Shown here: piece by piece, positions 4,389-54,698 of the stretch
Layout of the letters: every line of letters begins with the position of its first letter
Position numbering within the stretch: position 1 is the stretch's first letter
From: Enterobacter kobei
GTDB taxonomy: Bacteria; Pseudomonadota; Gammaproteobacteria; Enterobacterales; Enterobacteriaceae
Reading direction: 5' to 3'
DNA: 64,000 bases
Assembly (NCBI RefSeq): GCF_001729765.1
Contig: NZ_CP017181.1
Location: 3,968,001 to 4,032,000, forward strand
Translations under genes and position numbers: made by a program
Notes under the pieces: model-generated
The model's database searches: none
What the model was told of the DNA's origin: nothing
What the model saw: only the letters and a program-made list of their open reading frames with translations

Positions 4389-5309
4389 TTATTCGCCTTT
4401 TTTCGCCGCCTGAATGTAGAGCATTTCCAGTGCCAGGGTCGCTGCCGCCAGGGCCGTGATTTCGGACTGGTCATAGGCTGGCGCCACTTCCACCACGTCC
4501 ATCCCGACGATGTTCAGATCCTTCAGGCCGCGCACCAGCTTGATGGCGCGGTCGGACGTCAGGCCACCGATCACCGGCGTACCGGTGCCTGGCGCAAAGG
4601 CAGGATCCAGGCAGTCGATGTCGAAGGTCAGGTAGACTGGCATATCGCCGACAATCTGCTTCACCTGCGCGATGATGTCGTCCACGCCGCGATCGTTCAC
4701 CTGGCAGGCATCCAGCACGGTGAAGCCGTTGTCTTTGTCGAACTCAGTACGAATACCGATCTGCACGGAGTGGTTCGGATCGATCAGGCCTTCGTTCGGT
4801 GCAGTGTAGAACATAGTTCCGTGGTCAAACTCGCAGCCGTTCGCGTAGGTGTCGGTATGCGCATCAAAATGGACCAGCGCCATTTTGCCAAAGTGTTTCG
4901 CGTGGGCGCGCAGCAGTGGCAGAGTCACAAAGTGGTCGCCACCGAAGGAGAGCATACGCTTACCGGCAGCCAACAGTTTCTCGGCGTGGGCCTGCAGCTT
5001 TTCGCTCATCTCACGCGCGTCGCCGAAGGCATACACGAGGTCACCGCAGTCAACCACGTTCAGGCGCTCGCGCATGTCGAAGTTCCACGGGAAGCGGTTA
5101 TGCTCCCAGGCCAGGTTGGTGGAAACCTGACGGATCGCCGCCGGGCCATGACGTCCACCGGCACGACCCGAGGTTGCCATATCGAACGGCACACCGGTGA
5201 TCACCCAGTCAGCATCGCTGTCGTAGGGCTGGAAGTTCATCGGAAGGCGTAAAAAACCAAACGCGTTAGATACCAGAGAGTTGTCGTACTGATGACCTAA
5301 AGTGCTCAT
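4389..5309 (-). CDS. speB: Agmatinase
   Basis: A 306-residue enzyme almost identical to E. coli SpeB. It hydrolyses agmatine to putrescine and urea in the cytoplasm. The six manganese ligands of the ureohydrolase family are all present: His126 (GGDH), Asp149, His151, Asp153 (DAHTD), Asp230 and Asp232 (DID). The start at 5309 has an AGGTCAGGA ribosome site; an upstream in-frame codon at 5336 is not needed. In E. coli speB follows speA closely and both can be transcribed together. Here 16 kb of adhesin genes and a terminator-like hairpin separate them, so speB must use its own promoter. Confidence 0.98.
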
Positions 5310-5348
5310 GTCCTGACCTCTTAAAAGTCGTTGCATTAGATACAGATG

Positions 5349-5390
5349 AAAAAAAATCCCCTCCGCGTCGTTAAACCCGACGAGGAAGGG
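5349..5390 (-). terminator. Terminator-like hairpin upstream of speB
   Basis: Read on the minus strand, a 13-bp imperfect stem (CGACGAGGAAGGG against CCCCTCCGCGTCG, 7-base loop) is followed by eight T. It lies 40 bases before the speB start, so it would end or attenuate transcription arriving from upstream. Confidence 0.65.
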
Positions 5391-5721
5391 ATTGATGTCC
5401 TTACTGCTTTTGCCTAATGCTAGCCTCTGGAACGTGAAGATTCAAGCTCACTTTTCAAAACATAAATCAATTGTGTTGCCAGACTTTTACGGCTCCTAAT
5501 TATTCACCATACCGATAAAATTCATTTTTAGAATTGATATTATCTTAACCCCCCCATTTCTTCGCATTATTTGCGTTTAAAAGTTTGAAGCAAAACTTAA
5601 TTCATAAATTTAATAAATATACCATTTTAAAACTAGGAATATATTTAGGCTGGGACGATAGCGGTGGAGGAGATGACCTCTATACAATAGCCCCCCCCAA
5701 TGAAATGATATGGATATTTTT
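5391..5721. promoter_or_regulatory. Promoter region between speB and the fimbrial operon, with two poly-C tracts
   Basis: The gap is AT-rich and holds no convincing gene. It must carry the minus-strand speB promoter and the plus-strand fimbrial promoter. Runs of seven C (5549-5555) and eight C (5691-5698) stand out. TATACAAT at 5681-5688 resembles a -10 box immediately before the second run, but no good -35 is seen at the right distance. Confidence 0.5.
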
Positions 5722-6288
5722 ATGAATAAGTTATCTAAGCTGGCAATCCTGGCCGTTCTTTCAACCATCGGTACCGCCGCGGCAGCAGAAGATGGCACGA
5801 TTACTTTTGAAGGTACTATTAGCGACGCAACCTGTACTATTACCGGCGGTGACGCACAGGGCGAATCTGAAAGCCCAGACTTTACCGTTCATTTACCTTC
5901 TATTAGTACAACCGCGCTTGCAACGGATGGACAGCGTGCGGGCGATACCCCATTCCACATTACGTTAAGCGGCGCAAACTGCACCAATGGCAAAGTTGCC
6001 AGCGTATTCTTCGAACTGGCGCAAAGCACCAATATCGATGCCACCACCGGTAACCTGAAAAATACCGTGGCTAAAGCGTCAGGCGGAGCGGAGAAAGTTC
6101 AGGTTGGTTTACTGGATTCTTCAAAAGCAAAACTGAACCTGAATACTGCAAACGATAGCGCTAAAACTGTTACGGTTGCCGGTAATACGGCTCGCTTTGA
6201 TTACTGGGCACAATATGTGGCGACGGGTGGTGCATCTACTGCCGGTCAAGTCTCAACCGACGTTGTGTACTCCATTAAATATCAGTAA
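5722..6288 (+). CDS. Fimbrial major subunit (type 1 pilin family)
   Basis: A 188-residue secreted pilin. It has a Sec signal peptide (MNKLSKLAILAVLSTIGTAA, cleaved after AAA/AEDG), the cysteine pair typical of chaperone-usher pilins (DATC near residue 41, GANC about 45 residues later), and a C-terminal penultimate-Tyr beta-strand (YSIKYQ) for chaperone binding. GGAT seven bases upstream favours ATG 5722 over 5710. It is the first gene of the island operon and is followed by the chaperone after 54 bases containing a small GC-rich stem-loop. This is usual between a highly expressed subunit and the rest. Confidence 0.9.
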   Translation: MNKLSKLAILAVLSTIGTAAAAEDGTITFEGTISDATCTITGGDAQGESESPDFTVHLPSISTTALATDGQRAGDTPFHITLSGANCTNGKVASVFFELAQSTNIDATTGNLKNTVAKASGGAEKVQVGLLDSSKAKLNLNTANDSAKTVTVAGNTARFDYWAQYVATGGASTAGQVSTDVVYSIKYQ

Positions 6289-6342
6289 TCGCGCGCACCG
6301 CGGGTTTATCCGCTAAAAGTATCACCTAAAGGATTAGGCCAG

Positions 6343-7080
6343 ATGTTAAAAAAACTTGTTATATCTTCTGTATTCATGATGACGCTGGCCTTTTCCTTTG
6401 CGGCCAGTGCAACGATTCAAATTATGACGACCCGCGTGGCATTCAACGCCGGGGAGAAAGAACAAACGATTCGTATTAATAACGTCAGCAAAGCGCCTGA
6501 ACTGGTTCAGGTGTGGCTTTCCAGCACCGATAAGAGTGACGGCATCGCCAAAGAAGATTTGCCTTTCTTTATCACCCCACCGGCGGCCAGAATTAACGGC
6601 CAAAAGGGGAAAGTTTTCCGCATATTCCAGACGGAAGGCGCCGCCGCGAAATATCCAAAAGATCGTGAAACGGTTCTGTGGCTCAATGTCCTGGATATTC
6701 CGCCTGAAATGGCGGAAGACGTAGATAAAAATCAGCTAAAGATGGCGTTCAGAACGCTGATTAAATTTTTCTATCGCCCGGTTGGTCTGAAAGGTAATCC
6801 GATGAAAGCGGCGGATGAATTAACCTGGCAATTGAAAAAAGCAGCCAACGGTTATGACGTCGTTGGAACAAATAATTCGCCTTTCCATGTAAGCATGACA
6901 AATGTCTGGCTCAGAGATGCTCAGGGTAAAGATGTCATGATTGATGGCGAGATGATCGCGCCATATAGCACGCTGGTATATCACTTCCCGCAGGTTAACG
7001 CCGTGCAGGGGAAAGGGACATTCCAATACAATTATATTACCGATCTGGGTGCCTATATTAAGCGCACGTATAACTTCTGA
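6343..7080 (+). CDS. Periplasmic fimbrial chaperone (PapD family)
   Basis: A 245-residue chaperone with a signal peptide ending at SFAASA. The two immunoglobulin-like domains of the family follow. The first contains the proline-rich F1-G1 region (ETVLWLNVLDIPP), with the basic residues that anchor the subunit C-terminus. It holds pilin subunits in the periplasm and delivers them to the usher. It lies directly upstream of the usher gene (29 bases). Confidence 0.92.
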   Translation: MLKKLVISSVFMMTLAFSFAASATIQIMTTRVAFNAGEKEQTIRINNVSKAPELVQVWLSSTDKSDGIAKEDLPFFITPPAARINGQKGKVFRIFQTEGAAAKYPKDRETVLWLNVLDIPPEMAEDVDKNQLKMAFRTLIKFFYRPVGLKGNPMKAADELTWQLKKAANGYDVVGTNNSPFHVSMTNVWLRDAQGKDVMIDGEMIAPYSTLVYHFPQVNAVQGKGTFQYNYITDLGAYIKRTYNF

Positions 7081-7109
7081 TTAGTAATCATATTGACCAG
7101 GACGGTGAT

Positions 7110-9683
7110 ATGTCGATGTTTTACAAGAAAACTAACATTCTGCGGGTGATTAGTGGCTTTGTCATTTCGGTGACCATTGCGCCACTCGCAGTATATGCCA
7201 GTGATACCAGTAAGCCGATGACATTTTCTCGTGGGTTTATGAAGTATTACGATAGCGGAATCGATCTGACACAATTTGACGGCGTTGAAAAAATACTGCC
7301 GGGGAAATATACGCTTGAGGTTTACAGCAACCTCAAGCCGGTTAATACCTGGACCGTTACCTTTGTGGCTGCAAATAATGAGCAGGGATTCAACGCCTGC
7401 ATGACGCCCGAAATGGTCGTCCGCTTTGACGTCGACACATCAAAACTTCCCCCCGACTGGTAGCAGAATACCTGCATTATTCTCCCTGAGCTGATTAAAG
7501 GCGCGACGGTTAATTATAATGCGGTAGAAGAACAGCTGGATGTCACGATTCCTCAGGCAATGCTGCTGAATACGCCTGCGGGTTACGTAAGCCCGGAGTT
7601 ATGGGATAACGGCGTACCGGCGCTGATGTCCTCCTATACCCTTAGCGCCACCAGTTCACGTTATCGCCCCGCTCAGGACAACGCGACCTATCTCTACAGC
7701 AATTTGCACAACACCCTCGCACTGGGGGCATGGCGTTTTACGACCTACGACAGCCTGAGCTCCGGCAGCGACACGGAAAATACCGGCGTACAGCATATCC
7801 AGGCCTATGCAGAGCGGGCCATTGCGCCGCTGCAATCGCAGATAGTGCTGGGCGATCTGAACACCACCGGTGATTTTTTTGACACTACCGCCCTGCGTGG
7901 CGTTCGTCTCGCCACGGACGATCGCATGCTTCCCGACTCGGTACGCAACTATGCCCCGGTGGTGCGCGGCATCGCCAACAGCAACGCCACGGTGACCATC
8001 AAGCAGGCTGGCAACACCCTGTATGAAAAAGTGGTGCCGCCTGGGGAGTTCGCCATCAGCGATCTCTATGCGACCGGCTATAACGGCGATCTTGAGGTCA
8101 CCGTAAAAGAGACAAACGGCAAAGAGTCCTACTTCGTGGTCCCCTACTCCAGCGTGCCGCAGCTGCTGCGCGAAGGTTACTCCCGCTACTCTGTGGCTGC
8201 GGGTGAAATCCGCGATACCTGGCTGAAAGAGGATCCGAAAGCGGTTGAGGGCACGTTTCAGTACGGCTTATTCAATAACTTTACCGGCTACGTTGGCGGA
8301 CAGAGCGCGTTCGAAGGTGATTATGCGGCGCTGATGACCGGTTTTGCGATTAACACCCGTCTGGGCGCATTAGGCGTAGACGTGACGCGCTCTTTCACCC
8401 GCTTCGAGGGGCAGCCGGACACCGCAGGCTGCGGCACGTTCTGCAATATGAGCCTGCGCATTAGCCTGGCGAAGACCCTCCCGACAACCGGGACGAACTT
8501 CAGCCTGATTGGCTATCGCTACTCCAGCGCGAATTTCTACTCCCTGAGCGACGCGGTCAGCCTGAAGCGCTCGATTGAAGCCGATGAAGAAGACTTTCTC
8601 CCGGAACGCTATCGCGAGCGACTGGAAGCCAACATCAACCAGACGCTTCCCGCCGGTTGGGGAAGCTTCTACGTCAGCGGGTTTGTGGGCAACGTCTGGA
8701 ATAACGAGCAGGGCCGGAATGAAAAGTCGAACTTCGTGCTGGGCTACAACAACCAGTTTGGCATCACGACCTGGGGGATCTCCCTTGGCCGCACCAATAA
8801 CGACGATGGCGACCACGAAGATACGCTCTACCTGAACGTGAGCATGCCGCTTGGCCACCACTACGAGAAGCAGGCTCGCCTGGGGGCCAACTTTAGCTAT
8901 AACAGCGAAGAAGCCAACTTCCGTACCTCGCTGAACGGCTCCGCCGGGGAACGCTCACAGTTTGGCTTTGGCGGCTATTTCAGCCAGTCCAACACACCGG
9001 AAACTAACTTCGGCATGAACCTCTCCTACACGGGCGAGAGCGCCTCGGGCGGGATGACCTACAGCCAGTCCCGGGACTCCTTTATGGGAGGGGTCAACCT
9101 GAACGGCGGCGTGGTGGTGCATGAAGGCGGCATCAACTTTGTGCCGACCCTCGCAGACACCATTGGCATCGTGGAAGCAAAAGGCGCAGAAGGCTCCCGC
9201 ATCTACCCGGATTCCCAGGCCGTCATCAAAGACAACGGCTACGGCATTGTCGGGTATCTGGTGCCTTACAAGTACAACGAGGTGTACGCCGACCCGAAAG
9301 GCACCGCGTATACCGTCGAGGTCGACGACACCCGCCGAACCATCGTGCCAACCTCCGGCGCGGCAGTGCTGATCAAAATGGACACCCAGGCCAATCGCCA
9401 GAGCTTTGTGCGCTTTATGCAGCCTTCCGGCGAAGTGATCCCATTTGGTGCGTCGGTACTGGACGAATCGCACAACGCGATCGGCATGGTCGGTCAAAAC
9501 GGCGTGGCGATGGTGGCGCTTAAGGAAGGCCAAAACGTCTTTACCCTCCAGTGGAAGAAAAATAAAAAGCCCGCGCAGTGCGGTGCGCGTTATGTGAAGC
9601 AAGGCACTGAGGACCGACCAACCAAGGAAGAAGCGTTTAAGGCTATTGAAATTACCTGCATCAATAACGGGGCAACACCATGA
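7110..9683 (+). pseudogene. Fimbrial usher, interrupted by an in-frame TAG at 7461-7463
   Basis: The frame from 7110 to 9683 has 858 codons, the normal usher length, and is interrupted once, by TAG after ...KLPPDW. The same frame continues immediately with QNTCIILPELIKGATVNYN and the standard IPQAMLLNTPAGYVSPELWD segment, so nothing is shifted or lost. The signal peptide (ending VYA) and most of the periplasmic N-terminal domain precede the stop. The partner cysteine of that domain, the plug domain, the 24-strand barrel and the C-terminal domains follow it. A restart at ATG 7560 would lack a signal peptide. Without amber suppression or readthrough, no usher reaches the outer membrane and the fimbria should not be assembled. 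A sequencing error cannot be excluded. Confidence 0.88.
7461..7463 (+). other. In-frame amber codon inside usher
   Basis: TAG follows TGG and precedes CAG in the usher frame; a single base change from TGG or CAG would explain it. A run of six C ends seven bases upstream. Confidence 0.9.
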
Positions 9684-10675
9684 AACGGATTTTTACGGCT
9701 GCGCTGATTCTTTTATCCACGGCGTTTATCTCTTTAACGTGCAACAACGCCTATGCGGCGTTGTGCACCCTCACGTCCCCGTTGGCGACGCTGAATATCA
9801 TGGACGACATCACGCTTAACGTCATAAAGCAGCGTGAAGTCGGCAAGGTTTTATGGAGCAAAACCTATCAGGTGCCGGACGTCAGCTACACCTGCGACGC
9901 GTCCACCCAATCTTCATGGCATTCAAGCTATTCGCGAAGCTATATCCGGTCGCAGATTGATCATGTCTATAACACCGAAATCCCGGGGATAGGCATTCGC
10001 ATGCGATGGCCCACGCAGACCGAATCTTCATGGCTGCCGGGTAACTCGGGTTCGCCGACCACGTGCTCCACCGGTTGTGGAGTGAAAAACAGTACGGTTC
10101 TGGTGGAAATGGTCCAGACCGGCTCGATGCCTGAAGGGGAATACTTTATTCCAGCGGGTAAGGTGGCGGAGGCACTGGTGATCCCGTCCGCCGATGAAAG
10201 CGAAAAACTGCCGATTATGGCCATCAACTTTGGTGTTGCCATTAAGGTGGTTACCGCCTCGTGCTCCATTTACCCCTCGGCAACAAACGTCGATTTAGGC
10301 ACCTATAACATCGCCGATTTTCAAAACGACGATACTTTTCAGGGTGTTAAAAAAGACTTCAGCATCACCGTGGGCTGCCCTTCTACGGAACAAATTGGCA
10401 TCACTTTCAACTCCTTAATTAACACCCCTTTAGGCGCGTTGACCGGTGTGATCGGCGTTGAAAGCGGCGATGGCTATGCAAGCAATTTCAGTATTCGCCT
10501 TTTTGAGAAGAACTCAACCGCGATCACGCTGGGTAAGGAGAAGGTCTATACCGCCTCCACGCTCACCAAAAACTATCAGGCACAAATCTATGTTGGCGGC
10601 GGGGTCGATCGTAAGACGGCCCTCACCCCCGGCAAAGTTGTCGGCGCCGTTCAATACACCGTTGTCATTAAATAA
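9680..10675 (+). CDS. Fimbrial tip adhesin / minor subunit
   Basis: A 331-residue secreted protein whose start overlaps the usher stop by ATGA. The signal peptide ends at NNAYA. The first ~180 mature residues are an unrecognised cysteine-containing domain, with TCDAS and the pair TTCSTGCGV. The last ~130 residues look like a pilin domain (TASCSIYPSATNVDLGTYNI to GAVQYTVVIK). This receptor-binding plus pilin layout is that of FimH/PapG-type tip adhesins. The ligand cannot be deduced. It depends on the interrupted usher for export. Confidence 0.82.
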   Translation: MKRIFTAALILLSTAFISLTCNNAYAALCTLTSPLATLNIMDDITLNVIKQREVGKVLWSKTYQVPDVSYTCDASTQSSWHSSYSRSYIRSQIDHVYNTEIPGIGIRMRWPTQTESSWLPGNSGSPTTCSTGCGVKNSTVLVEMVQTGSMPEGEYFIPAGKVAEALVIPSADESEKLPIMAINFGVAIKVVTASCSIYPSATNVDLGTYNIADFQNDDTFQGVKKDFSITVGCPSTEQIGITFNSLINTPLGALTGVIGVESGDGYASNFSIRLFEKNSTAITLGKEKVYTASTLTKNYQAQIYVGGGVDRKTALTPGKVVGAVQYTVVIK

Positions 10676-10692
10676 CGCTCAGGGAGAGAGTG

Positions 10693-12426
10693 ATGCGTTG
10701 TCATTTTAAAATCAAAAACGTCCTGTTTTTACTGCCTTTATTACAGGTGGCCCATGCCGCCATACTGCCCTCAGTTCAGAACAAGCAGGAACTTGACCGC
10801 CTGGAGCGGCAGAGTAACCAGTATCTGATTGAAGAGGCGAAAAGAACGGAAGCGTTGCTGCAACAGCAGCGCGCAATTCGCGGCGAAGACGCGGAGACCG
10901 GCCTGCCGGCAAATTCATCGTGGAAGTTCAACGTAACCCGGATCGAGATCCTCGACGATCATCTGTTCGACGGATCGCCGCAGCGCGAGGAGATCGTCCA
11001 GCGCTATCTGGGTAAGGATCTTGGTAAATCTGACATTTTCACCTTAGTGAAAGAGTTAACGGATTTTTATATTTCCCGTGGCTATGCCACCACTCTTATC
11101 AGTATCGACCCCGGCAACATCAAGAGCGGTACGCTTAAGCTTCGCGTGCTGTGGGGAAAGATTAACGATTTTAAGGTGAACGGCCAGACACCGGGCCTGC
11201 GTGATAGCACGCGTCTTTTTACCGCCTACCCGTTTGCCAAAGACAAGATCCTCAATATGCAGGATGTCGACCAGATGGTTGAGAACCTGATGCGGGTCTC
11301 GGAGAGGGATAATATTAGCGTTGAACCCTCAATCATTAATGGCTATTCCGATCTTAACCTGATTCATCAGCCCTCATTTCCGATTGACGCGGCGGCGGGG
11401 TTAAATAACTCCGGGAGCAAATCAGAAGGCTGGCAGCAATATTACGGCAGCCTGACGGCAAAAAATATTGCCGGATTAAACGACATTTTTAATGCGTATT
11501 ACTCGTGGAACGATCTGAAAAATAATAATGATAAACAGGACTCCTGGTCATTTAGCTACAGCGTGCCGCTGGGCTATTGGGGGTTTGATACCAGCTATTA
11601 CAAATCCGAATACGAAAAAGGCATCGACGGCGGCTTCGGCATTTACGATTCCGATGGCACGTCAGAGCGTGCATCCCTGCGTATCAGCCGCATGCTGATG
11701 CGTGGCGCAACGGGCAAAACCAGCGCCTGGATGAAAGTCGAACGCCGGGATAACTACAACGGCATCGAAAACGCGCGCATTGACGTTAGCTCAAAAACCT
11801 ACACCTCGCTGGCGTCGGGCCTGACCTACGTTGGCGCCATGGGCGGTGGCTGGTTCTATGGCGATCTGAGCGTCACCGCGGCGGTGCCGTGGTTTGGTTC
11901 AGCCCGCGACGGCGATAAAGACCTTGAGGGTTTCGACGTCGATTATCTGAAATACAACGGCATTGCCTCCTGGACGCGCCCGCTCGCTAAGTTTGGCCGA
12001 CTCGGCATGACCTACGAGCTGAACAGCGGTTTTCAGTACACGCCGGATGTGCTGGTGAGTGATGCCAAAGTGACTATCGGCGATGAATACACCGTTCGTG
12101 GTTTCAAAGACGATAACGTGATGAGCGACAGCGGCGCGTGGATTGCCAATAGCCTGCAGTTTCCTTTCGATATTGGACTGGCCGGTATTTACCAGCTGAC
12201 TCCCTATATTGGCTACGACGCTGGCTTCACAAAAGATAATTGCCCGAAAGGCGTCAATGTCTGCGACAGCCAATTCATGATGGGCGCATCAGTGGGCGTT
12301 AAAGCCACTGGCAGCCATTTCTCTTCCTACGTTATGGCAGGGTGGCCCGTTAAAAAACCAGACTCAATGGAAGAAGAAACCGTCGATAACACGGTGGTTT
12401 ATTACAAAACGGAAATTAACTTCTAA
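10693..12426 (+). CDS. Two-partner secretion outer-membrane transporter (TpsB, FhaC/ShlB family)
   Basis: A 577-residue Omp85-superfamily protein. The signal peptide ends at VAHA. An N-terminal helix with a linker (KQELDRLERQSNQYLIEEAK) leads into POTRA domains (SRGYATTLISIDPG, LKLRVLWGKI). A 16-strand barrel follows, with the conserved lid motif VRGF at residues 468-471 (EYTVRGFKDD), and it ends in an aromatic residue (EINF). It exports the TpsA protein encoded 14 bases downstream. ATG 10693 follows AGGGAGAG, so the GTG at 10690 is not needed. Only 17 bases separate it from the fimbrial adhesin gene, so fimbria and TPS genes appear to be one transcription unit. Confidence 0.93.
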   Translation: MRCHFKIKNVLFLLPLLQVAHAAILPSVQNKQELDRLERQSNQYLIEEAKRTEALLQQQRAIRGEDAETGLPANSSWKFNVTRIEILDDHLFDGSPQREEIVQRYLGKDLGKSDIFTLVKELTDFYISRGYATTLISIDPGNIKSGTLKLRVLWGKINDFKVNGQTPGLRDSTRLFTAYPFAKDKILNMQDVDQMVENLMRVSERDNISVEPSIINGYSDLNLIHQPSFPIDAAAGLNNSGSKSEGWQQYYGSLTAKNIAGLNDIFNAYYSWNDLKNNNDKQDSWSFSYSVPLGYWGFDTSYYKSEYEKGIDGGFGIYDSDGTSERASLRISRMLMRGATGKTSAWMKVERRDNYNGIENARIDVSSKTYTSLASGLTYVGAMGGGWFYGDLSVTAAVPWFGSARDGDKDLEGFDVDYLKYNGIASWTRPLAKFGRLGMTYELNSGFQYTPDVLVSDAKVTIGDEYTVRGFKDDNVMSDSGAWIANSLQFPFDIGLAGIYQLTPYIGYDAGFTKDNCPKGVNVCDSQFMMGASVGVKATGSHFSSYVMAGWPVKKPDSMEEETVDNTVVYYKTEINF

Positions 12427-12440
12427 CAAAGGGAAGAATA

Positions 12441-15400
12441 ATGAAAAACAAAAACACACGCAGCGGAAAAATAACCACGCGCAATTTGCATAAGCGGCTC
12501 TGCCCATTATATCTGTCTTTGGCCGGCATTTTCTCGGCCCCGGTCGATGCGGCAACCACGCCTGATAATCGTCAGTCGAAAGGCCCTACCATGGGCCAGG
12601 CGGCCAACGGCACGCCCGTGGTGAATATTGCCGATCCTAATGCGAAAGGCATCTCCATGAATAAATTCAACGAATTTAACGTTGAAAAACAGGGGATGAT
12701 CTTTAACAACAGCATGCAGGACGGCGTAACGAAAATTGGCGGCTATGCGGTAAAAAACGCCCAACTGCAGCACGAAGCCAGCGCCATTATCAGCGAAGTA
12801 ACGGGTGCGAAAGCGTCCTACATTAACGGCACGATGGAAGTTTTCGGTAAAAAGGCCGACATCATCATTGCCAACGAAAACGGCATTAGCGTGAACGGCG
12901 CAACCACCATCAATGCCAACAGCCTGACCCTCAGCACCGGTAAAGTGCAGGCAAATAACGACGGTTCCTATAAGCTGGCGGTCGAAAAAGGGGCGGTATC
13001 CGTCACCGGTCAGGGCATTAATACCGACGGGCTGGGCTACTTTGACATCGTTAGCCGCAGCGCGCAGCTGGAAGGCGAAATTGCCGGTAAAGCAGACATC
13101 AAAGTGCTGGCGGGCCAGAACGACTACGACCTTGCGACCCGTAGCCACACCGTGCGTAACAAAGGCGACGGACGGGGTCCGGCCGTGGCTATCGACGGTA
13201 GCGCGCTTGGCTCCATGTACGGCGGAAAGATCCAGCTAATCAGCACCGAATCCGGGGCGGGCGTCCGTCATGCCGGCGGCATTATCGCCAGCAGCGATCT
13301 CGAGATCAGTGCGGATGGCGACATTACGCTCGCCAGCCTGTCGAGCGAGAAAAATATGTCGCTCTCCGGCAAGAATATCACCCTGAACAAATCCACTTCC
13401 GGCGTTCAGGCAAAAAACGACATTATCATGAACGCCCTGGCGGGCATCACGCTGAATAACGACGTGATCGCCTCAACCGGCAAAATCCGCATTGATGCCA
13501 GCTCGCTGGTGCAAAATGCCGCCTCGCTGGTAACCAACAGCACCACCACCACCGTTCCGGCGATTCAGATTAACGTCGCGGGCCAGTATACCCTGAACGG
13601 CAAACTGCAGGCGCTGGACGCCAACGGCAAGGTCATTGCAGACGGCGTCGTGACGCTGAAAAACGGCGATTTCGTTGTGAAGGTCAACGGCGTTGAAGTG
13701 CCGTTTGCCTCGCTGATCTCGGATACCCAGGTGATCAGCCACAGCGGTGACGTACAGATTACCGCAGGCAGCATGAATAACGGCGGCGGCAGCGTCCTGG
13801 CGAAAAAAGGCACCCTGCAGTTCACCCTGAAAGAGGCCTTTGTGAACAGCGGCTCCGTCAGCGCCACGGGGGACCTGACGATTGCGTCCGGCTCACTGAA
13901 GAACGACGGCGTGCTGTACGCATCCAATAACCAGACGCTCCGCGTCGGCAACCTGGACAACAACGGCCGCATCTTCGCGGAAAAACGGCTGGTGATGAAC
14001 GCCAGCGCGCTGAACAACCGTGGAAACATCGGTGCGACCACTGACGCACTGCAGGTCACCACGACCGGCAATTTGACCAACAGCGGCACCCTCGTGGGTG
14101 ATGCGGCAGCCGTCAGCCTGAACGTCGGCGGCGACGTCGACAACAGCGGTAACATCATCAGCAACGAAAAAGATGTCTCCCTGACTGCCAGCGGTAAATC
14201 CATCAAGAACCAGGGCAAAATCGAGGGGAAAAACGTTACCCTGACAGCGTCCAACGCCGACGCGACGCTTGAAAACAGCGGTACGCTGAACGCCAGACAA
14301 AAAGCGCAGGTGAAAGCGGCGAAGCTGAATAACAACGGCGGAACCCTGAGCGCAGCGGGCGATGTTGCGCTGAACGTCAGTAAGCAATTAAATAACACCC
14401 ACGGCGGCGAGATCCTGGCGGGAGAAAACCTTACGCTGGACGGCGCGCAGACGACTGCACTGACCAACGACAATAGCCGGATCCAGGGGAAAAACGTCAC
14501 CCTGACCAACATGTCCACTCTCACCAACACGGGCGACGCCGTTCTGCTCGCGAGTGGGGCGATGGATCTGTCCGGCACAACAACGCTGACCAACTCGGCC
14601 TCCGGCATTCAGGCAACGTCCATCCTGCTGGACCACATCGGCACGCTGAATAACATCAGCGATGCTACCCTCTACAGCAGCGGCAATCTCACTCTGTCCA
14701 ACATCGGTACCCTCACCAACGATGCGTCTCAGCTGGTTGCAGACGGTGCGCTGGCGATGCTGAACATCACAAACGTATCCAACACCAACAGCGCCGCGAT
14801 CGTCGGTAGCGGCAGCGTAACAATCAGCAATGTGGATACGCTCCACAACAGCAACAGTGCGGTGATCCAGTCTGAGCATGCCCTCAGCATGAACAACGTG
14901 GGTACGCTGAACAACAGCACTGACGCGGCGCTCCTCGCCTCGGGCAACATGACCCTGGACGGTGTGAATACGCTGAACAATGCCTCGGTGATCCTCAGCG
15001 ATGGCAGCATTACGATGCAGAACGGCGACACGCTGCACAATAACGGCGTCGTGCAGGCGGGCACCGATCTGATTATCCGCAATATCCGAAGCCTGATGAA
15101 CGACGGGAGCGACCATGTGCTCATGGCCCTGCGGAACCTGACGATCGAGGATGTGGATTCCCTGACCAACTCCAGCCAGGCGGTGATCACGGCCAGCATG
15201 AACACGGTGCTGAACGCCGTTGGCGTACTGACTAACCTCTCCGGTGGGGTGATTCAGGCCGTTGATGGGGCGTTAACCGTCGCGGCAAATTCGCTCCTCA
15301 ACAGCGGCAGTGAAAATGGTTCGAATTCGACTCTGGTGGCGGGCGGCGATGTGATCGTGACGTCAGAGAATGTGACCAACGAGAGTGGCGCGGCCATTGT

Positions 15401-18400
15401 CTCGACGGATAACAACCTGACGCTGAACGTGAAGAACACCCTTAACAACAGCGATGAAGCCGTGCTCGCAGGGGCAAAAACGACCTCGCTGAATGTTCAG
15501 ACAGGCAACATCAAAAACACCACTGAAGCAGTCATTGCGGGCACAAATATTGCAGTTGCGACCAAAAACCTGCAAAACGATGCCAACGCCTCCATCACCG
15601 CCGACCGGGATCTGCAGCTGACTCTCGCCAGCCTGAACAACACGGCCGGTATTCTTGAGGCCGGACGCGATCTCACGCTTAGCGTTGACAACAGCCTGAC
15701 CCTCGACGCCAATAACCAGAATATCTACGCCGGACGCGCGATGGCGATCGCCACGCACGGCGACTTTACCAATAGCACCCAGATGGAAGCGATTGGCGAT
15801 TTGACCGTGAATGCAGACGGTAATTTCACCAACGCCGTCTCTATCGTGACCGGAGGCGATCTCAACGTCACCGCGGGCAATATCACCAACAATGCCGGTA
15901 GCCTGCTGTGGACGATGGGCGATATGAGTCTGGAAGCCCGTAACGGTACTTTCTTCAACGGCGTGTCGGGTAACGTGCTCAGCATGGGCGATATGTCGAT
16001 TATCGCGAAGGAGATCCATAACCAGGCCGGGATCATTCGCGCAGAGAAGGACGTGAATTTAGACGCGGAATCCATCAGAAACGAAAGTAGCTATACCGGC
16101 GACGAAATCTCCATGACGGGTTATCAGAACGCCAGTGCGGTATATAGCACCGTTGAGCATCTCGCGACGAAATCTAACACCATGATTAACTTCTCAATGC
16201 CGGTTGTGACCTCGGGATTGAGACTGGATCATCAGGCCGAGATCAGCGCGGGCGGCAACATTAATATTAACCAGCGCAATATCTACGACAGAAAACAGAT
16301 TACAAACAAAGGTGGTCTGATTCAGGCGGCGAAAGATATTACGGTTACCGGTGATATCTACAACTCACCGGAATACGGTGAAATGTCCATTTATGATTAT
16401 CTGCAGCTGCCGTTAGAGATGCAGGGCGGGCTCACCTATCAGTGGCATTTAGGCGCCTATCATACGTCAACGTGGAACTTTGATACTCTTTACCAGTTCC
16501 TCGACTTCGAGTTTGGCAATGGCGCAGCGGCCGGTAAGACAGGCAGTGATGACCCTGAAAAAGCGCTCTGGTACAACGCCGTCGTGATGACCGGCAACGA
16601 GTCCACGCTTTTCAACAAAATGATGTCCGACATCTTCGGTGAAACCTGGCAAACCACCGACTACGGTACAATGTGCGGTATCTGGGCGAGCGTAACAGCC
16701 TCCAATAATGAGGCATTAAAAAACAATAAAACCTACTTCGTTCCTTCTGAAAAAGGCGAGATCACCGCGGGCGGTAACTTTACGCATAACGGCGGCACGC
16801 TGGATAACGGTATTGCGGACGCTGGGGTGATTAACAGCCACAGCGACGTAAGCGATATCGACGTGGGTGAATACACCGTGGATACGGTCATTGCCGGTTA
16901 CGATGTCCAGGTAAATACCAAGAAAATTGACGAGCTGGCGATGGGCATTAGCCCGATGCCAACCATCAAGGATATGGTCTCCATTCCGGGCATGTTTGAA
17001 GTCTCAACCGACTTTAAGAAAACCGCCGAAGCGGAAAAAAATGGCACGGCTTATCCGGGGCCAGCCAACAATATCGTTCCGATCTTTGAAACGCGTCCGT
17101 CAATGATCGATCAGAGCGCTTACACAGGATCGGATTACTTCTTCGATCAGGTGGGCTATGACCCGCAGAAGCCGGTTAACGTTATTGGTGATAACTACTT
17201 CACCTCAGAATTGATCCGCCGTGAGATCAACAGCTCGGTGGGCAGTTTCTTTTCGATCCGTGATGGTCTGGAAGGCGACGCGCTGGTGCAGGCCCTGATG
17301 GATAATGCAGGCTTGGCAGCACAGGACAGCGAGCTGGGGCTGGTTGTTGGTCAATCCCTGACCGAGGAGCAGCGCAACGGACTGGACGCCGATATCGTCT
17401 GGTTCGTCAATCAGACGGTGAACGGCGTGGACGTGATGGTCCCGGTCGTGTACCTGTGCCCTGAAACGCTTCGTCAGATGGAGAGCGGAGACGTTAACGG
17501 CGGCACCGCGACCGTTCATGCCGGTGGCGATATGAACGTCGACGCGAACAGCATCAATAACGCCAACGGTACAATCTCATCCAAAGGCGACATGACGCTG
17601 GTCTCTGATGGGGATATCAACAACGTTAGCAACGGCATGAGCGCGGGTATCTCTGCGGGCGGCGACATCAATATGTCCAGCACCAGCGGCAATATCAATA
17701 ACAACGGCGCGGCGATTAACGCTGAGGGCGACGTGAACATGTCCGCAGCTCAGGGTGACATCACCATGACGGCCAGCGTAGGGCGCGATGAGAGCGGCAA
17801 GCAGGTGATCCACGCCTTTGAGGACGGCGTTACCGCAGGCGGCAGCATTAACATGGAGGCTAAATCAATCACCTCCAACGCGTCGGATATTACGGCGGGT
17901 CAGGATGTAAGCATGAAGGCCACCGACGGCGACGTCACCTTCAATGACCTGCATGAAATTGACGCCACGCGTATCATTGATAACGACGTCAGAAGCGCGC
18001 TCAACTACACGATGTCTGATACCTCAACCACCACGGGCAAAGCCATTGGCGCGAATGTTTCCGCTGGCGGCAACATGAGTATCGAGGCCAAAAACGACGT
18101 GGTGATGGAAGGGGGGACCTACAACGCCCAGACCGGCAGCATCACCGCTGAAAATGACGTGACGATCAAAACGTCCCAGGACGTTGCTCACGAAGAACAG
18201 CACAGCTCGTCACGCGAGTTTGTCATCAGCGCGGGCGTCAGCGGCGGCGGCCTGTCGGTTAACACCAGCTACGGCACCATGGACGGCGGCAGCACCGAAA
18301 CGACCTCCGGCGACTATGTCAGCGCAGGATCAGAATCCGACACCTCCGCTATCGGCAAGAAGCCTGGCCGTGCGCCGGTGAATGATACGGCTGGCTTCAC

Positions 18401-21400
18401 GTTTGGCATGAGCACCTCCAGTGACTCGTCCGTCACCGACAGCAAAAAGAACACCAATGCCGCAATCAACTTTGGCCAGTCCGGGATGATTGAAGCCGGT
18501 AAGACCGCTGACATTGGTGGGGCGGATCTCAGCGCGGGCAATGCCCTGACCATCAACGCCGAGGACGTCGCGACCACGAAATATGAAGATGAGATGAAAA
18601 ACACCTCATCCCATAAAGCGACGTCGTTTGGTATCACGGGTGAAGCCCACAGCACCCTTGTAGATACCTTTGATAAAGCCGGTAACCTGATTGAAAAAGG
18701 CACCGAAGGCCAGTCTGCCAACGCCGGAACAACGGCTGCGGAAGTGCTGGGCGAGGCCTCTAACCTGCTGCTCAACGATCTGGCTGGCGGTTCCGTTACC
18801 ATTGGCGGCAGTTCGTCTAAATCGCACTCGACCTCCACCTCCACGGCGGAAAACATTAACCACATCAGCGCCAATAACGTTTCGATCAACACCAAAAAAG
18901 ACACCACGTTGAACGGAACAGACATTAGCGGCCAGAACGTTGAAATTAACGCAGGCGGCGATGTGAACATGAATGCGGCGAAATCCACATCCAGCTACAG
19001 CAACACCACCGAGGAGCACTCGGCGGGCATCTCGGCTGGGGTGGGCGTGGATCTCTCCGGCGTGAGCGGCGGCGCGTCTGTCGACTACAGCGGCAGCAAA
19101 GAGACCGGAACAGGCAACAGCACCAGCTACACCAACAGCACCATTACGGCAGGCGACGTCAAAATTAAGTCCGGCGGCGACATGACCATGAGCGGTGCCA
19201 ACATTGACGCCAATACCGCGGACGTGGATGTTGCAGGGGATATGACCGTGAACTCCCTTCAGGATACGGTTCACACGGACAACGAGCGTGCCAACTGGGG
19301 TGCATCCGTCGGTGTAGCCGTGTCGACGAAAGGCGTGATGCCTACCGGGGCCGTTAACGGCGGCGGCGGCTCAGAGGCTTATGACTCGGCAACCACCGCG
19401 AAGCAGTCCGGCATTCACACCACGGGGGACGTGCAGGTGAAAACCGGCGGCGACCTCAACATGGCGGGGGCCAATATCGTCTCTGATAATGGCACCGGTA
19501 ACGTCAACGTTGCGGGCAATATCAACGCCAAAGACCTGCAAGATACCGTTGAGCAGGACGGCCTGTACGGCGGTGGCGGCGTAGGTATCGGTGGTTTGCC
19601 GGGTAAAAAAGGCGGCATTCCATCGGCTAACATCTACGTGGATACGGTCGATGAGATCCACCGTAACGAAACGCAGAAATCCACCATTTCCGTGGGGGGC
19701 ACCACCAGCAAAGGTACGACTGGCGAGATCAACACCAACAAGGATGAGATGTCCGTTGTCACCCGTGACGAAAAAGAAGCGGGTAACAATATCTCCTATA
19801 CCCTTGCGGATCCTGGTATCGGTAAGAAGAAAAAAGGCAGTTACGACGTCGATACGCCGAGCGACCACCGCAATGGCGGCGGCTCGTCGAAGCATTCAGG
19901 CGATGGCACGAAGAAGAAAGAGGATACGCCAGCGAAACCTGCGCACAGCGAAGCGGTGCCTGCCGTTACGCCGTCGAAAGCGGACAATCTTAAGCCTGCG
20001 CCAAAACCGGCTGACAGCACGACGAAGACGGATACCACCCCGTCTGGAACCGCGCACAGCGAAGCGGTGCCTGCCGTTAAGCCGTCGAAAGCGGACGATC
20101 TGAAGCCTGCGCCGAAACCGGCTGACAGCACGACGAAGACGGATACCACCCCGTCTGAAACCGCTCACAGCGAAGCGGTGCCTGCCGTTACGCCGTCGAA
20201 AGCGGATGACCTGAAGCCTGCACCGAAACCGGCTGACAGCACGACGAAGACGGATACCACCCCGTCTGAAACCGCGCACAGCGAAGCGGTGCCTGCCGTT
20301 ACGCCGTCGAAAGCGGATGACCTGAAGCCTGCACCGAAACCGGCTGACAGCACGACGAAGACGGATACCACCCCGTCTGAAACCGCGCACAGCGAAGCGG
20401 TGCCTGCCGTTACGCCGTCGAAAGCGGACGATCTGAAGCCTGCGCCGAAACCGGCTGACAGCACAACGCCGAAGAAAAAATGGGACGTTCCAAATACGAA
20501 TTACCCAACGCTTTCTCCGGGTTCTGCAACCGGTAAAACCGGCAAAGATATGCCGAAAACGCCAGAGCACAGAAAGTGGAACGGCGACATGACCAACGGC
20601 GTGGCGCCGTCGAGCAACCCGAAAGGCACCGACGTCAAGCTCTCGCCAGGTTCGTCCACCGGTCAGACCGGCATGGACATGCCGAAAACGCCTGAGCACA
20701 AGCAGTGGAACGGCGACATGACCAACGGTGTCACGCCGTCGAGCAACCCGAAAGGCACCGACGTCAAGCTCTCGCCGGGTTCGTCCACCGGTCAGACCGG
20801 CATGGACATGCCGAAAACGCCTGAGCACAAGCAGTGGAACGGCGACATGACCAACGGCGTGGCGCCGTCGAGCAACCCGAAAGGCACCGACGTCAAGCTT
20901 TCGCCGGGTTCTTCCACCGGTCAGACCGGCATGGACATGCCGAAAACGCCTGAGCACAAGCAGTGGAACGGCGACATGACCAACGGCGTGGCGCCGTCGA
21001 GCAACCCGAAAGGCACCGACGTGAAGCTCTCGCCGGGTTCGTCCACCGGTCAGACCGGCATGGACATGCCGAAAACGCCTGAGCACAAGCAGTGGAACGG
21101 CGATATGACCAACGGCGTGGCGCCGTCGAGCAATCCGAAAGGCACTGACGTCAAGCTCTCGCCAGGTTCGTCCACCGGTCAGACCGGCATGGACATGCCG
21201 AAAACGCCTGAGCACAAGCAGTGGAACGGCGATATGACCAACGGCGTGGCGCCGTCGAGCAATCCGAAAGGCACTGACGTCAAGCTCTCGCCAGGTTCGT
21301 CCACCGGTCAGACCGGCATGGACATGCCGAAAACGCCTGAGCACAAGCAGTGGAACGGCGATATGAGCGCAACAGCACAGCCGAAGCAGTGGCTGCCGCT

Positions 21401-21470
21401 AATGGCGGAAACGCCAATTAATATCTATGCGAAGGTGACCATTACGTTCCAGGACGAACAGCTGAGTTAA
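12441..21470 (+). CDS. Giant filamentous-hemagglutinin-like exoprotein (TpsA)
   Basis: A 3009-residue secreted adhesin. A long signal sequence ends near residue 38 (APVDA). The TPS secretion domain follows (KGISMNKFNEFNVEKQG near residue 70, ANENGISVNG around 144). Then comes a very long stretch of short beta-helix repeats of the type L-NN-G-I/L-A-GN-L, expected to form a fibre. Hemagglutinin-repeat-like segments cover about residues 1690-2450. The C-terminus is hydrophilic and repetitive: five 37-residue Pro/Lys/Thr-rich units (2501-2676) and seven 43-residue SPGSSTGQTG units (2692-2975), then a short unique tail. I see no VENN motif, toxin domain or downstream immunity gene, so an adhesin fits better than a contact-dependent inhibition protein. 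It follows TpsB by 14 bases. Confidence 0.92.
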   Translation: MKNKNTRSGKITTRNLHKRLCPLYLSLAGIFSAPVDAATTPDNRQSKGPTMGQAANGTPVVNIADPNAKGISMNKFNEFNVEKQGMIFNNSMQDGVTKIGGYAVKNAQLQHEASAIISEVTGAKASYINGTMEVFGKKADIIIANENGISVNGATTINANSLTLSTGKVQANNDGSYKLAVEKGAVSVTGQGINTDGLGYFDIVSRSAQLEGEIAGKADIKVLAGQNDYDLATRSHTVRNKGDGRGPAVAIDGSALGSMYGGKIQLISTESGAGVRHAGGIIASSDLEISADGDITLASLSSEKNMSLSGKNITLNKSTSGVQAKNDIIMNALAGITLNNDVIASTGKIRIDASSLVQNAASLVTNSTTTTVPAIQINVAGQYTLNGKLQALDANGKVIADGVVTLKNGDFVVKVNGVEVPFASLISDTQVISHSGDVQITAGSMNNGGGSVLAKKGTLQFTLKEAFVNSGSVSATGDLTIASGSLKNDGVLYASNNQTLRVGNLDNNGRIFAEKRLVMNASALNNRGNIGATTDALQVTTTGNLTNSGTLVGDAAAVSLNVGGDVDNSGNIISNEKDVSLTASGKSIKNQGKIEGKNVTLTASNADATLENSGTLNARQKAQVKAAKLNNNGGTLSAAGDVALNVSKQLNNTHGGEILAGENLTLDGAQTTALTNDNSRIQGKNVTLTNMSTLTNTGDAVLLASGAMDLSGTTTLTNSASGIQATSILLDHIGTLNNISDATLYSSGNLTLSNIGTLTNDASQLVADGALAMLNITNVSNTNSAAIVGSGSVTISNVDTLHNSNSAVIQSEHALSMNNVGTLNNSTDAALLASGNMTLDGVNTLNNASVILSDGSITMQNGDTLHNNGVVQAGTDLIIRNIRSLMNDGSDHVLMALRNLTIEDVDSLTNSSQAVITASMNTVLNAVGVLTNLSGGVIQAVDGALTVAANSLLNSGSENGSNSTLVAGGDVIVTSENVTNESGAAIVSTDNNLTLNVKNTLNNSDEAVLAGAKTTSLNVQTGNIKNTTEAVIAGTNIAVATKNLQNDANASITADRDLQLTLASLNNTAGILEAGRDLTLSVDNSLTLDANNQNIYAGRAMAIATHGDFTNSTQMEAIGDLTVNADGNFTNAVSIVTGGDLNVTAGNITNNAGSLLWTMGDMSLEARNGTFFNGVSGNVLSMGDMSIIAKEIHNQAGIIRAEKDVNLDAESIRNESSYTGDEISMTGYQNASAVYSTVEHLATKSNTMINFSMPVVTSGLRLDHQAEISAGGNININQRNIYDRKQITNKGGLIQAAKDITVTGDIYNSPEYGEMSIYDYLQLPLEMQGGLTYQWHLGAYHTSTWNFDTLYQFLDFEFGNGAAAGKTGSDDPEKALWYNAVVMTGNESTLFNKMMSDIFGETWQTTDYGTMCGIWASVTASNNEALKNNKTYFVPSEKGEITAGGNFTHNGGTLDNGIADAGVINSHSDVSDIDVGEYTVDTVIAGYDVQVNTKKIDELAMGISPMPTIKDMVSIPGMFEVSTDFKKTAEAEKNGTAYPGPANNIVPIFETRPSMIDQSAYTGSDYFFDQVGYDPQKPVNVIGDNYFTSELIRREINSSVGSFFSIRDGLEGDALVQALMDNAGLAAQDSELGLVVGQSLTEEQRNGLDADIVWFVNQTVNGVDVMVPVVYLCPETLRQMESGDVNGGTATVHAGGDMNVDANSINNANGTISSKGDMTLVSDGDINNVSNGMSAGISAGGDINMSSTSGNINNNGAAINAEGDVNMSAAQGDITMTASVGRDESGKQVIHAFEDGVTAGGSINMEAKSITSNASDITAGQDVSMKATDGDVTFNDLHEIDATRIIDNDVRSALNYTMSDTSTTTGKAIGANVSAGGNMSIEAKNDVVMEGGTYNAQTGSITAENDVTIKTSQDVAHEEQHSSSREFVISAGVSGGGLSVNTSYGTMDGGSTETTSGDYVSAGSESDTSAIGKKPGRAPVNDTAGFTFGMSTSSDSSVTDSKKNTNAAINFGQSGMIEAGKTADIGGADLSAGNALTINAEDVATTKYEDEMKNTSSHKATSFGITGEAHSTLVDTFDKAGNLIEKGTEGQSANAGTTAAEVLGEASNLLLNDLAGGSVTIGGSSSKSHSTSTSTAENINHISANNVSINTKKDTTLNGTDISGQNVEINAGGDVNMNAAKSTSSYSNTTEEHSAGISAGVGVDLSGVSGGASVDYSGSKETGTGNSTSYTNSTITAGDVKIKSGGDMTMSGANIDANTADVDVAGDMTVNSLQDTVHTDNERANWGASVGVAVSTKGVMPTGAVNGGGGSEAYDSATTAKQSGIHTTGDVQVKTGGDLNMAGANIVSDNGTGNVNVAGNINAKDLQDTVEQDGLYGGGGVGIGGLPGKKGGIPSANIYVDTVDEIHRNETQKSTISVGGTTSKGTTGEINTNKDEMSVVTRDEKEAGNNISYTLADPGIGKKKKGSYDVDTPSDHRNGGGSSKHSGDGTKKKEDTPAKPAHSEAVPAVTPSKADNLKPAPKPADSTTKTDTTPSGTAHSEAVPAVKPSKADDLKPAPKPADSTTKTDTTPSETAHSEAVPAVTPSKADDLKPAPKPADSTTKTDTTPSETAHSEAVPAVTPSKADDLKPAPKPADSTTKTDTTPSETAHSEAVPAVTPSKADDLKPAPKPADSTTPKKKWDVPNTNYPTLSPGSATGKTGKDMPKTPEHRKWNGDMTNGVAPSSNPKGTDVKLSPGSSTGQTGMDMPKTPEHKQWNGDMTNGVTPSSNPKGTDVKLSPGSSTGQTGMDMPKTPEHKQWNGDMTNGVAPSSNPKGTDVKLSPGSSTGQTGMDMPKTPEHKQWNGDMTNGVAPSSNPKGTDVKLSPGSSTGQTGMDMPKTPEHKQWNGDMTNGVAPSSNPKGTDVKLSPGSSTGQTGMDMPKTPEHKQWNGDMTNGVAPSSNPKGTDVKLSPGSSTGQTGMDMPKTPEHKQWNGDMSATAQPKQWLPLMAETPINIYAKVTITFQDEQLS
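19941..20469 (+). repeat. Five tandem 111-bp repeats in tpsA
   Basis: Units begin at 19941, 20052, 20163, 20274 and 20385; the last is partial (about 84 bases). Each encodes 37 residues starting AHSEAVPAVTPSKADDLKPA. Copies differ by only a few bases, which indicates recent duplication and easy copy-number change without frameshift. Confidence 0.95.
20514..21365 (+). repeat. Seven tandem 129-bp repeats in tpsA
   Basis: Units begin at 20514, 20643, 20772, 20901, 21030, 21159 and 21288; the seventh is partial. Each encodes 43 residues starting SPGSSTGQTGMDMPKTPEHK. The first unit is the most divergent (SATGKTGKD). The last two share the same synonymous changes, which points to stepwise expansion from the 3' side. 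Confidence 0.95.
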
Positions 21471-23545: not shown

Positions 23546-23553
23546 AGCGAACC

Positions 23554-23685
23554 TCAACTCTTTGTATTAAGTGTAAAACAGTTGACTACTATCGCAGCGT
23601 TATACGGCGATAACAACCCATAAACGGCTCCGTTTCCCAGCAGAGTATGCTGAAATCCAGACCGTGCGACCGGTTTCTTATTCAT
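23554..23685 (-). CDS. yqgB: Small acid-stress protein YqgB
   Basis: A 43-residue ORF ending eight bases before the speA start. Its C-terminal half ([19 protein letters not shown]) is nearly the same as E. coli YqgB, which sits in the same place before speA. The start [10 protein letters not shown] at 23685 gives the E. coli length; the open frame extends to 23760 but without similarity that I recognise. Its position suggests translation within the speA leader. Confidence 0.8.
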
Positions 23686-30501: not shown

Positions 30502-31062
30502 ATGAATTTACAGCATCACTTTCTTATTGCCATGCCTGCTCTCCAGGATCCGATTTTTCGCCGCGCCGTGGTTTATATTTGTGAATACAATGAAGACGGC
30601 GCGATGGGCATTATCATCAATAAGCCGCTGGAAAACCTGCAGGTTGAAGGGATTCTGGACAAGCTGAAAATCCCGGCTGAAGCGCGACTGCCGGAGATCC
30701 GGCTTGATAAACCGGTGATGCTGGGTGGACCACTTGCAGAAGATCGCGGCTTTATCCTGCATACCCCGCCGGTATTCTCTTCCAGTATCCGCATCTCCGA
30801 TAACACCGTGATCACCACCTCGCGCGACGTGCTCGAAACGCTGGGTACCGCAGAACAGCCTTCCGCAGTGCTGGTGGCGCTGGGGTACTCGTCGTGGGAG
30901 AAAGGCCAGCTTGAGCAGGAAATCCTCGATAACGCCTGGCTTACCGCACCAGCGGACATGAATATTCTGTTTAAAACCCCGATAGCCGATCGCTGGCGCG
31001 ATGCGGCAAAACTGATTGGCATTGATATTCTGACCATGCCTGGTGTCGCGGGGCACGCCTGA
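30502..31062 (+). CDS. yqgE: UPF0301/AlgH family protein YqgE
   Basis: A 186-residue protein matching E. coli YqgE. The conserved start [20 protein letters not shown] and the [13 protein letters not shown] segment define the family. The molecular function is not established; the Pseudomonas member AlgH was linked to alginate regulation. Its stop overlaps the start of yqgF (TGATG), so the two are translated together. Confidence 0.95.
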
Positions 31063-31478
31063 TGAGCGGAACACTTTTGGCCTTTGATTTTGGTACCAAA
31101 AGCATTGGCGTCGCTGTGGGTCAGCGCATCACCGGTACCGCGCGTCCGCTCACGGCCCTGAAGGCCAACGACGGCACGCCTGACTGGAATCTTATCGAAC
31201 GTCTGCTGAAAGAGTGGCAACCGGATGATGTTATCGTTGGGCTGCCGCTGAATATGGACGGCACCGAACAACCCCTTACCGCCCGCGCGCGTAAGTTCGC
31301 CAATAAAATCCATGGCCGCTTTGGCGTCTCCGTGAAGCTTCACGACGAGCGTCTTAGCACCGTCGAAGCGCGTGCTGGCCTGTTTGAGCATGGTGGCTTC
31401 CGGGCGCTCAACAAAGGCAGCGTAGACTCCGCCTCTGCCGTCATCATCCTCGAAAGCTATTTCGAACAGGGCTATTAA
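31062..31478 (+). CDS. yqgF: RuvX/YqgF RNase H-fold nuclease
   Basis: A 138-residue protein with the RNase H-like acidic site: Asp9 in [15 protein letters not shown], Glu in HDERLST, and Asp in [12 protein letters not shown] near the end. The family was first proposed as a Holliday-junction resolvase, and work in E. coli points to 5' maturation of pre-16S rRNA. It is coupled to yqgE. Confidence 0.95.
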
Positions 31479-54516: not shown

Positions 54517-54698
54517 AGGCGCTAGTTACCCTCACCGAACGGTGAGACAGGGAGGAGAAAATTCGCGCAATAATGTCACCTTTTATTTTGAGGTGCAAGA
54601 AGGAATCAATATGCACAAAACCTTCCAAAGCTAAGCGTAATGCCCGCTTTGCGTGTCATAATCATGCAATACCAATGATTAAGTAACAGGAGTTAGCG

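What the first reader, a model, noticed from the sequence alone, without database searches (positions are those of the whole stretch)
7461..7463. In-frame amber codon splits an otherwise intact fimbrial usher
The frames 7110-7463 and 7560-9683 are the same reading frame. Between them only TAG interrupts, and the residues after it continue the usher N-terminal domain up to the IPQA and SPELWD landmarks. Loss of the usher should block the fimbria while the rest of the operon stays open. Since all other genes in the operon look undamaged, the change is either recent, corrected by suppression/readthrough, or a sequencing error.
Basis: seen in the sequence. Interest (0 to 1): 0.72.

Follow-up and report, generated by a model that had tools for sequence, protein, structure and literature searches.

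The report
Strain-specific nonsense mutation in fimbrial usher
One bacterial genome carries a single premature stop codon in the gene for the outer-membrane pore that assembles a surface fibre, while the relatives examined carry the same gene unbroken; this looks like an ordinary recent loss-of-function mutation (or a sequencing error), not a special decoding event.

Summary
In detail: TAG at 7461-7463 is the only break in an otherwise open fimbrial usher frame (7110-9683), and it splits the PapC_N domain. In 6 of 6 homologous loci with the same gene order, from 97% down to about 43% identity, both halves lie in one open frame. In the 24 best of 758 database proteins, 24 of 24 have an amino acid at the aligned column. 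The nearest, P0007, differs from the window's two pieces by 2 of 856 residues, so an intact allele very probably exists in the same or a sister lineage. The stop is thus private to this genome at the resolution available. The other operon genes are open. Substitutions show no significant relaxation. None of 88 predicted tRNA genes has a CUA anticodon. Of 41 relative ORFs with a counterpart in the window, 3 were flagged and only the usher is truly interrupted, so the assembly is not generally poor. Best reading: a recent strain-level nonsense mutation that stops this fimbria. A sequencing error is the main rival. Amber bypass, as claimed for CS3 pili, is possible but unsupported.

The parts
5710..6288 (+). 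FimA-like pilin gene, intact
   Evidence: Pfam FimA and Fimbrial over cut-off; coordinates from the first ATG
6343..7080 (+). PapD-like periplasmic chaperone gene, intact
   Evidence: PapD_N and PapD_C
7110..7460 (+). usher gene, first piece: 117 codons, N-terminus and first half of PapC_N
   Evidence: PapC_N model 2-79 of 146; duplex with 16S tail -6.8 kcal/mol at ATG 7110
7461..7463 (+). in-frame amber (TAG) codon interrupting the usher
   Evidence: sequence; one open frame in 6 of 6 homologous loci; a residue in 24 of 24 best proteins
7464..9683 (+). usher gene, second piece: 739 codons, rest of PapC_N, Usher barrel, PapC_C
   Evidence: Pfam; ATG 7560 is only a weak restart candidate, -2.5 kcal/mol at spacing 1
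9680..10675 (+). tip adhesin gene (MrkD-like receptor-binding domain plus Fimbrial domain); its ATG overlaps the usher stop by 4 bases
   Evidence: Pfam MrkDrd and Fimbrial; coordinates
10690..12426 (+). TpsB-type transporter gene (ShlB/FhaC-like)
   Evidence: ShlB, POTRA_2, POTRA_3
12441..21470 (+). TpsA-type large exoprotein gene (FhaB-like), 3009 aa, intact
   Evidence: TPS domain and Fil_haemagg in the first 1000 residues, the only part scanned; open frame

Best explanation
The TAG is a recent, strain-level nonsense mutation in the usher gene of a chaperone-usher fimbrial operon. Shown: the gene is cut inside its N-terminal domain, the relatives examined are intact, the rest of the operon is open, no CUA tRNA was found, and no significant decay is seen. 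Inferred: ribosomes stop after 117 residues; restart at ATG 7560 is weak and would give a protein without signal peptide or most of the N-terminal domain, so no working usher reaches the outer membrane and this fimbria is not assembled. The tip gene, whose start overlaps the usher stop, and perhaps the secretion pair behind it may also be expressed less through polarity.
For: Single stop splitting PapC_N. A residue at the column in 24 of 24 best proteins, no gap, no stop. P0007 identical in 117 of 117 and 737 of 739 residues of the two pieces; P0001, a 141-residue fragment identical over the first 117, also reads across the site. Own-lineage nonsynonymous:synonymous changes in the usher 16:36, not different from pilin, chaperone, tip and TpsB together, 25:62 (Fisher p 0.85), nor from the G008 lineage, 11:40 (p 0.37). 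dN/dS between own and G008 0.075 for the long piece. None of 88 ARAGORN tRNA genes has a CTA anticodon.
Against: No DNA of a conspecific strain could be seen, so the stop could be shared by a clade within the species. The members of the P0007 cluster (383 sequences) were not seen one by one. The long piece alone has a slight excess of nonsynonymous changes on the own lineage (14:30 against 7:38, p 0.085), not significant. A base-calling error would look the same. No expression data.
Confidence: 0.8

Rival explanations
1. The TAG is a base error in the assembly and the usher is intact in the living strain.
For: Single isolated stop in an otherwise constrained gene, 2 of 856 residues from an intact database protein. 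Four of the six proteins found with the first piece (P0002-P0005) look, by hand reading, like frame-shifted versions of this gene in other assemblies, so its assembled sequences are not always clean.
Against: Genome of 2 contigs, 100% complete. In the region compared with G008, 41 relative ORFs have a counterpart; 3 were flagged, only the usher is a real break, and no split-frame case was seen. The site is not itself in a homopolymer; six bases separate it from a C6 run at 7449-7454.
Confidence: 0.14
2. The amber codon is real and is bypassed (near-cognate or suppressor tRNA), giving low or regulated amounts of full-length usher, as claimed for the CS3 pili of enterotoxigenic E. coli.
For: Precedent by title: Jalajakumari et al. 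1989, seen only as a reference-list entry. The long piece is constrained. Belinky et al. 2021 (PMC7918605; abstract and passages seen) argue that in-frame stops are often kept with low dN/dS.
Against: The stop is in none of 6 homologous loci, and 24 of 24 best proteins have a residue there. No CTA anticodon among 88 tRNA genes. Constraint measured over a divergence that mostly predates a private stop says nothing about readthrough.
Confidence: 0.05
3. The two frames are separate genes or a split usher by design, the second translated from ATG 7560.
For: An ATG ORF of 707 codons exists.
Against: 6 of 6 loci examined have one frame. The restart site is weak, -2.5 kcal/mol at spacing 1, against -5.0 to -8.2 for five of the six gene starts of the operon; the pilin start is also weak (0 at 5710, -3.1 at 5722). 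Later rare-codon starts score up to -4.8 (7821, 7830) but lie further inside. The second product would lack a signal peptide (inference).
Confidence: 0.01

Closest known systems
Fimbrial usher genes broken in single strains or serovars: sefC of Salmonella Gallinarum, named among genes with SNP-introduced stops (PMC4454671, passages); a fimbrial usher of Citrobacter rodentium ICC168 that is intact in EX-33 (PMC3072379, passages)
   Same: Usher gene broken in one strain or serovar and intact in another
   Different: The C. rodentium case is an IS102 insertion with neighbouring fimbrial genes lost; here one codon, with the rest of the operon open
CS3 pili of enterotoxigenic E. [quoted passage not shown] 1989; title seen in reference lists only; that the codon lies in the usher gene is recalled)
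   Same: In-frame amber codon in a fimbrial assembly gene
   Different: There bypass was reported; here the stop is not shared with the relatives examined and no suppressor tRNA was found. A later CS3 paper (PMC6681793, passages) calls cstB an usher gene with nested starts and holds 'amber' only in that citation
Bordetella fhaB/fimABCD/fhaC operon (PMC11019879, passages)
   Same: Fimbrial genes and a two-partner secretion pair in one operon, with fhaC behind the fimbrial genes
   Different: Here the large exoprotein gene lies last, after TpsB; bears on the operon, not on the stop

Membership tests
FimD/PapC outer-membrane usher | PapC_N, Usher barrel and PapC_C domains | tested here: met
   All three over cut-off, PapC_N split by the stop
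FimD/PapC outer-membrane usher | One continuous reading frame | tested here: not met
   TAG at 7461-7463; met in 6 of 6 homologous loci
Nonsense pseudogene (strain-level) | Stop absent from relatives | tested here: met
   0 of 6 loci and 0 of 24 proteins have a stop there
Nonsense pseudogene (strain-level) | Relaxed selection after the stop | tested here: inconclusive
   16:36 vs 11:40, p 0.37; 14:30 vs 7:38 for the long piece, p 0.085
Amber-bypassed usher (CS3 type) | Host tRNA with a CUA anticodon | tested here: not met
   86 Rfam tRNA matches genome-wide, 150 of 211 candidates scored; 88 ARAGORN genes in the 35 regions holding them, none CTA. Near-cognate reading not testable
Amber-bypassed usher (CS3 type) | Stop conserved among alleles | tested here: not met
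   Relatives and nearest proteins only; strains of the same species were not available as DNA
Amber-bypassed usher (CS3 type) | Full-length protein made | not testable with these tools
   needs protein from the native strain

The most novel reading that the evidence does not exclude
The amber codon is a real, low-level expression valve: leaky decoding of UAG by ordinary tRNAs gives a few usher molecules per cell, so that a subset of cells makes the fimbria, a second natural instance of the CS3-type amber bypass, in a chromosomal fimbria linked to a two-partner secretion pair.
Probability: 0.04. Interest if true: 0.55.

Novelty: new member of a known kind. Interest (0 to 1): 0.15.

Why it matters
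If real it is one more strain-level loss of a fimbria by a point nonsense mutation, in an operon that also carries a two-partner secretion system. It marks the strain as probably non-fimbriate for this fibre. It is a caution against reading readthrough into a stop that relatives lack. It would become interesting only if full-length usher were detected in the native strain.

Tried and rejected
Megablast of 5700-12400 against E. coli genomes and plasmids: no match (the tool says records near the window's genome may be left out), so no conspecific DNA there. The genome-contig scan gave 3 loci; the own species did not appear, with the same caveat. An odd tRNA with a two-base 'ag' anticodon call (L081 296-369) was considered as a suppressor and rejected: it sits in a cluster similar to phage tRNA clusters, its loop (read by hand) holds no CTA, and Rfam did not list it. 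The two other relative ORFs flagged as interrupted in the window (51529-52317 and 52384-54642) were rejected as breaks: the window genes at 51550-52326 and 52381-54516 are open, so the stops lie in upstream extensions of the relative's ORFs. The one reverse case (30573-31391, minus strand) is at least partly antisense to an open gene at 30502-31062. Promoter and terminator scan of 5337-12500: 8 promoter-like sites against 7.1 expected, 14 terminator-like against 8.8 (sd 3.2); not informative for an internal promoter. Paper searches for a fimbrial usher with amber codon or readthrough brought up, in what I read of them, only the CS3 work by reference. Structure prediction was not run, since it would not separate the explanations. 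The organism was not identified.

Full report
Observation. The window holds a row of genes on the + strand between an agmatinase-like gene (4389-5336, minus strand) and an arginine-decarboxylase-like gene (21569-23557, minus strand) (these two names are recalled from the sequences, not from a family search). The genes are a FimA-like pilin, a PapD-like chaperone, an outer-membrane usher, a MrkD-like tip protein, and a ShlB/FhaC-like transporter with its large TPS-domain exoprotein. That they form one operon is inferred from spacing and strand. The usher frame starts at ATG 7110, meets TAG at 7461-7463 and is then open for 739 codons to the stop at 9683. Before the stop the protein matches PapC_N positions 2-79. 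After it, it matches PapC_N 87-145, the Usher model (1-547 of 549) and PapC_C.

Relatives. One search covered 99 genomes, the own one included; 52 had a match to the long piece at E <= 1e-100. Most listed places are other ushers at 33-39% identity. Apart from the own copy, four genomes match at 71-97%. In these six distinct loci the pilin, chaperone, both usher pieces, tip and TpsB lie in the same order, and the two usher pieces lie in one open frame in 6 of 6. In the protein database the first piece found 6 proteins and the second 758, of which 120 were listed; only the 7998 candidates sharing most words were scored in the second search. I aligned the 24 best (P0007-P0030) to the window's pieces: 24 of 24 have a residue at the stop column, with no gap and no stop. 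The nearest, P0007 (857 aa, cluster of 383 member sequences, source not shown), is identical in 117 of 117 residues before and 737 of 739 after the stop. I take it as an allele of the same or a very close species (inference). The cluster's members were not seen singly. P0001 (141 aa, from a 1157-base contig) also reads across the site and leaves the usher sequence later.

Age and constraint. Between the window and G008 dN/dS is 0.20 for the short piece and 0.075 for the long piece. The chaperone has 0.084, TpsB 0.081, the pilin 0.15 and the tip 0.21. With G043 as outgroup the own lineage has 16 nonsynonymous and 36 synonymous usher changes, against 11 and 40 on the G008 lineage (p 0.37) and 25 and 62 in pilin, chaperone, tip and TpsB together on the own lineage (p 0.85). 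The long piece alone gives 14:30 against 7:38 (p 0.085). Sites that could not be polarised were left out: 46 for the usher and 74 for the other four genes. There is no significant sign of decay, as expected for a very recent stop or an error.

Decoding. Rfam tRNA matches in the whole genome number 86 (150 of 211 first-look candidates were scored). The 35 regions holding them were fetched, and ARAGORN found 88 genes, none with anticodon CTA. One of the 88 is an opposite-strand call overlapping an arginine tRNA (L093) and may be spurious. One has an irregular six-base anticodon loop and lies in a phage-like tRNA cluster; its loop, read by hand, holds no CTA. Selenocysteine tRNA was not searched for, since it concerns TGA. 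Low-level reading by near-cognate tRNAs cannot be excluded by sequence.

Restart. ATG 7560, the first in-frame ATG, GTG or TTG after the stop, has a duplex of -2.5 kcal/mol at spacing 1, against -6.8 for the usher's own start, -5.4 chaperone, -5.0 tip, -8.2 TpsB and -5.3 TpsA. The pilin start is also weak (0 at 5710, -3.1 at 5722). Rare-codon candidates further in reach -4.8 (7821, 7830). A product from 7560 would lack the signal peptide and most of PapC_N, so it should not work (inference).

Assembly control. 58 ORFs of at least 120 codons were called in the matching 79.6 kb of G008. 41 had a counterpart above 70% identity in the window, and 3 contained stops there, with no split-frame case. 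The alignable part ends near window position 55600. Two of the 3 are upstream extensions of open window genes. The usher is the only real break. In reverse, 39 of 44 window ORFs had a counterpart and 1 was flagged, a frame at least partly antisense to an open gene. So the assembly is not indel-ridden here, but a single wrong base cannot be excluded.

Literature. Losses of fimbrial ushers in single strains or serovars are documented: sefC, named among genes with SNP-introduced stops in a Gallinarum comparison (PMC4454671, passages); an IS102-truncated usher in C. rodentium ICC168 (PMC3072379, passages). A survey of Salmonella gives a median of 1 disrupted coding sequence annotated as fimbrial per genome (PMC9238391, passages). 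Amber bypass is reported for CS3 pili (Jalajakumari et al. 1989; only title and citation seen). Stop codons inside constrained genes are argued to be widespread (PMC7918605, abstract and passages), and two interrupted Shigella genes gave full-size bands, readthrough being one suggestion (PMC11327459, passages).

Verdict. A private, recent nonsense mutation is most likely (0.80), an assembly error next (0.14), bypass less likely (0.05), a split gene by design least (0.01). The likely effect is loss of this fimbria, with possible polarity on the tip and the two-partner secretion genes. Interest is low.

Noticed in passing
G000:C1:1136931-1138663 (L104): A second usher gene of the same genome is split into two overlapping frames (a TGA is flagged in the first match and the reading continues in another frame). 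The 15 usher matches fall at 14 places, so two of 14 may be broken.
   Followed up: partly
L081 296-369 (G000:C1:1591695-1591768): tRNA-like gene with a six-base anticodon loop, called '???' by ARAGORN, inside a Met-?-Thr-Gly tRNA cluster similar to phage clusters; the same 86 bases occur at 100% identity in five E. coli records.
   Followed up: partly
window 7288-7293, 7449-7454; proteins P0002-P0005: Four of the six database proteins found with the usher's first piece leave the frame at or near homopolymer runs (A6, C6, a G4), by hand reading: either assembly errors or a slippage-prone stretch just before the stop. Only proteins, not their DNA, were seen.
   Followed up: partly
window 5710-21470: Chaperone-usher fimbria and FhaC/FhaB-like two-partner secretion genes in one row; fimbrial and TpsB genes stay together in G008, G043, G052, G007, C. 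sedlakii and E. psidii. Resembles the Bordetella fha-fim operon, but with the exoprotein gene at the end.
   Followed up: partly
window 19900-21400: C-terminal repeats of the large exoprotein differ from G008: 5 against 0 SEAVPAV and 7 against 5 KTPEH occurrences.
   Followed up: no
window 7110-7460 against 7464-9683: The usher's first piece diverges faster than the rest, also between intact relatives and the window (91% against 97% to G008; 62% against 86% to G043).
   Followed up: no
P0006 (protein database): A 105-residue usher N-terminal fragment named from Citrobacter rodentium (36 contigs) suggests that a related usher is cut short there too.
   Followed up: no
G000:C2:1-20000 (L116): The second contig is plasmid-like; this stretch matches a Citrobacter portucalensis plasmid (NZ_AP022488.1) over 100% at 99.8%, with a silver/copper sensor gene.
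   Followed up: no
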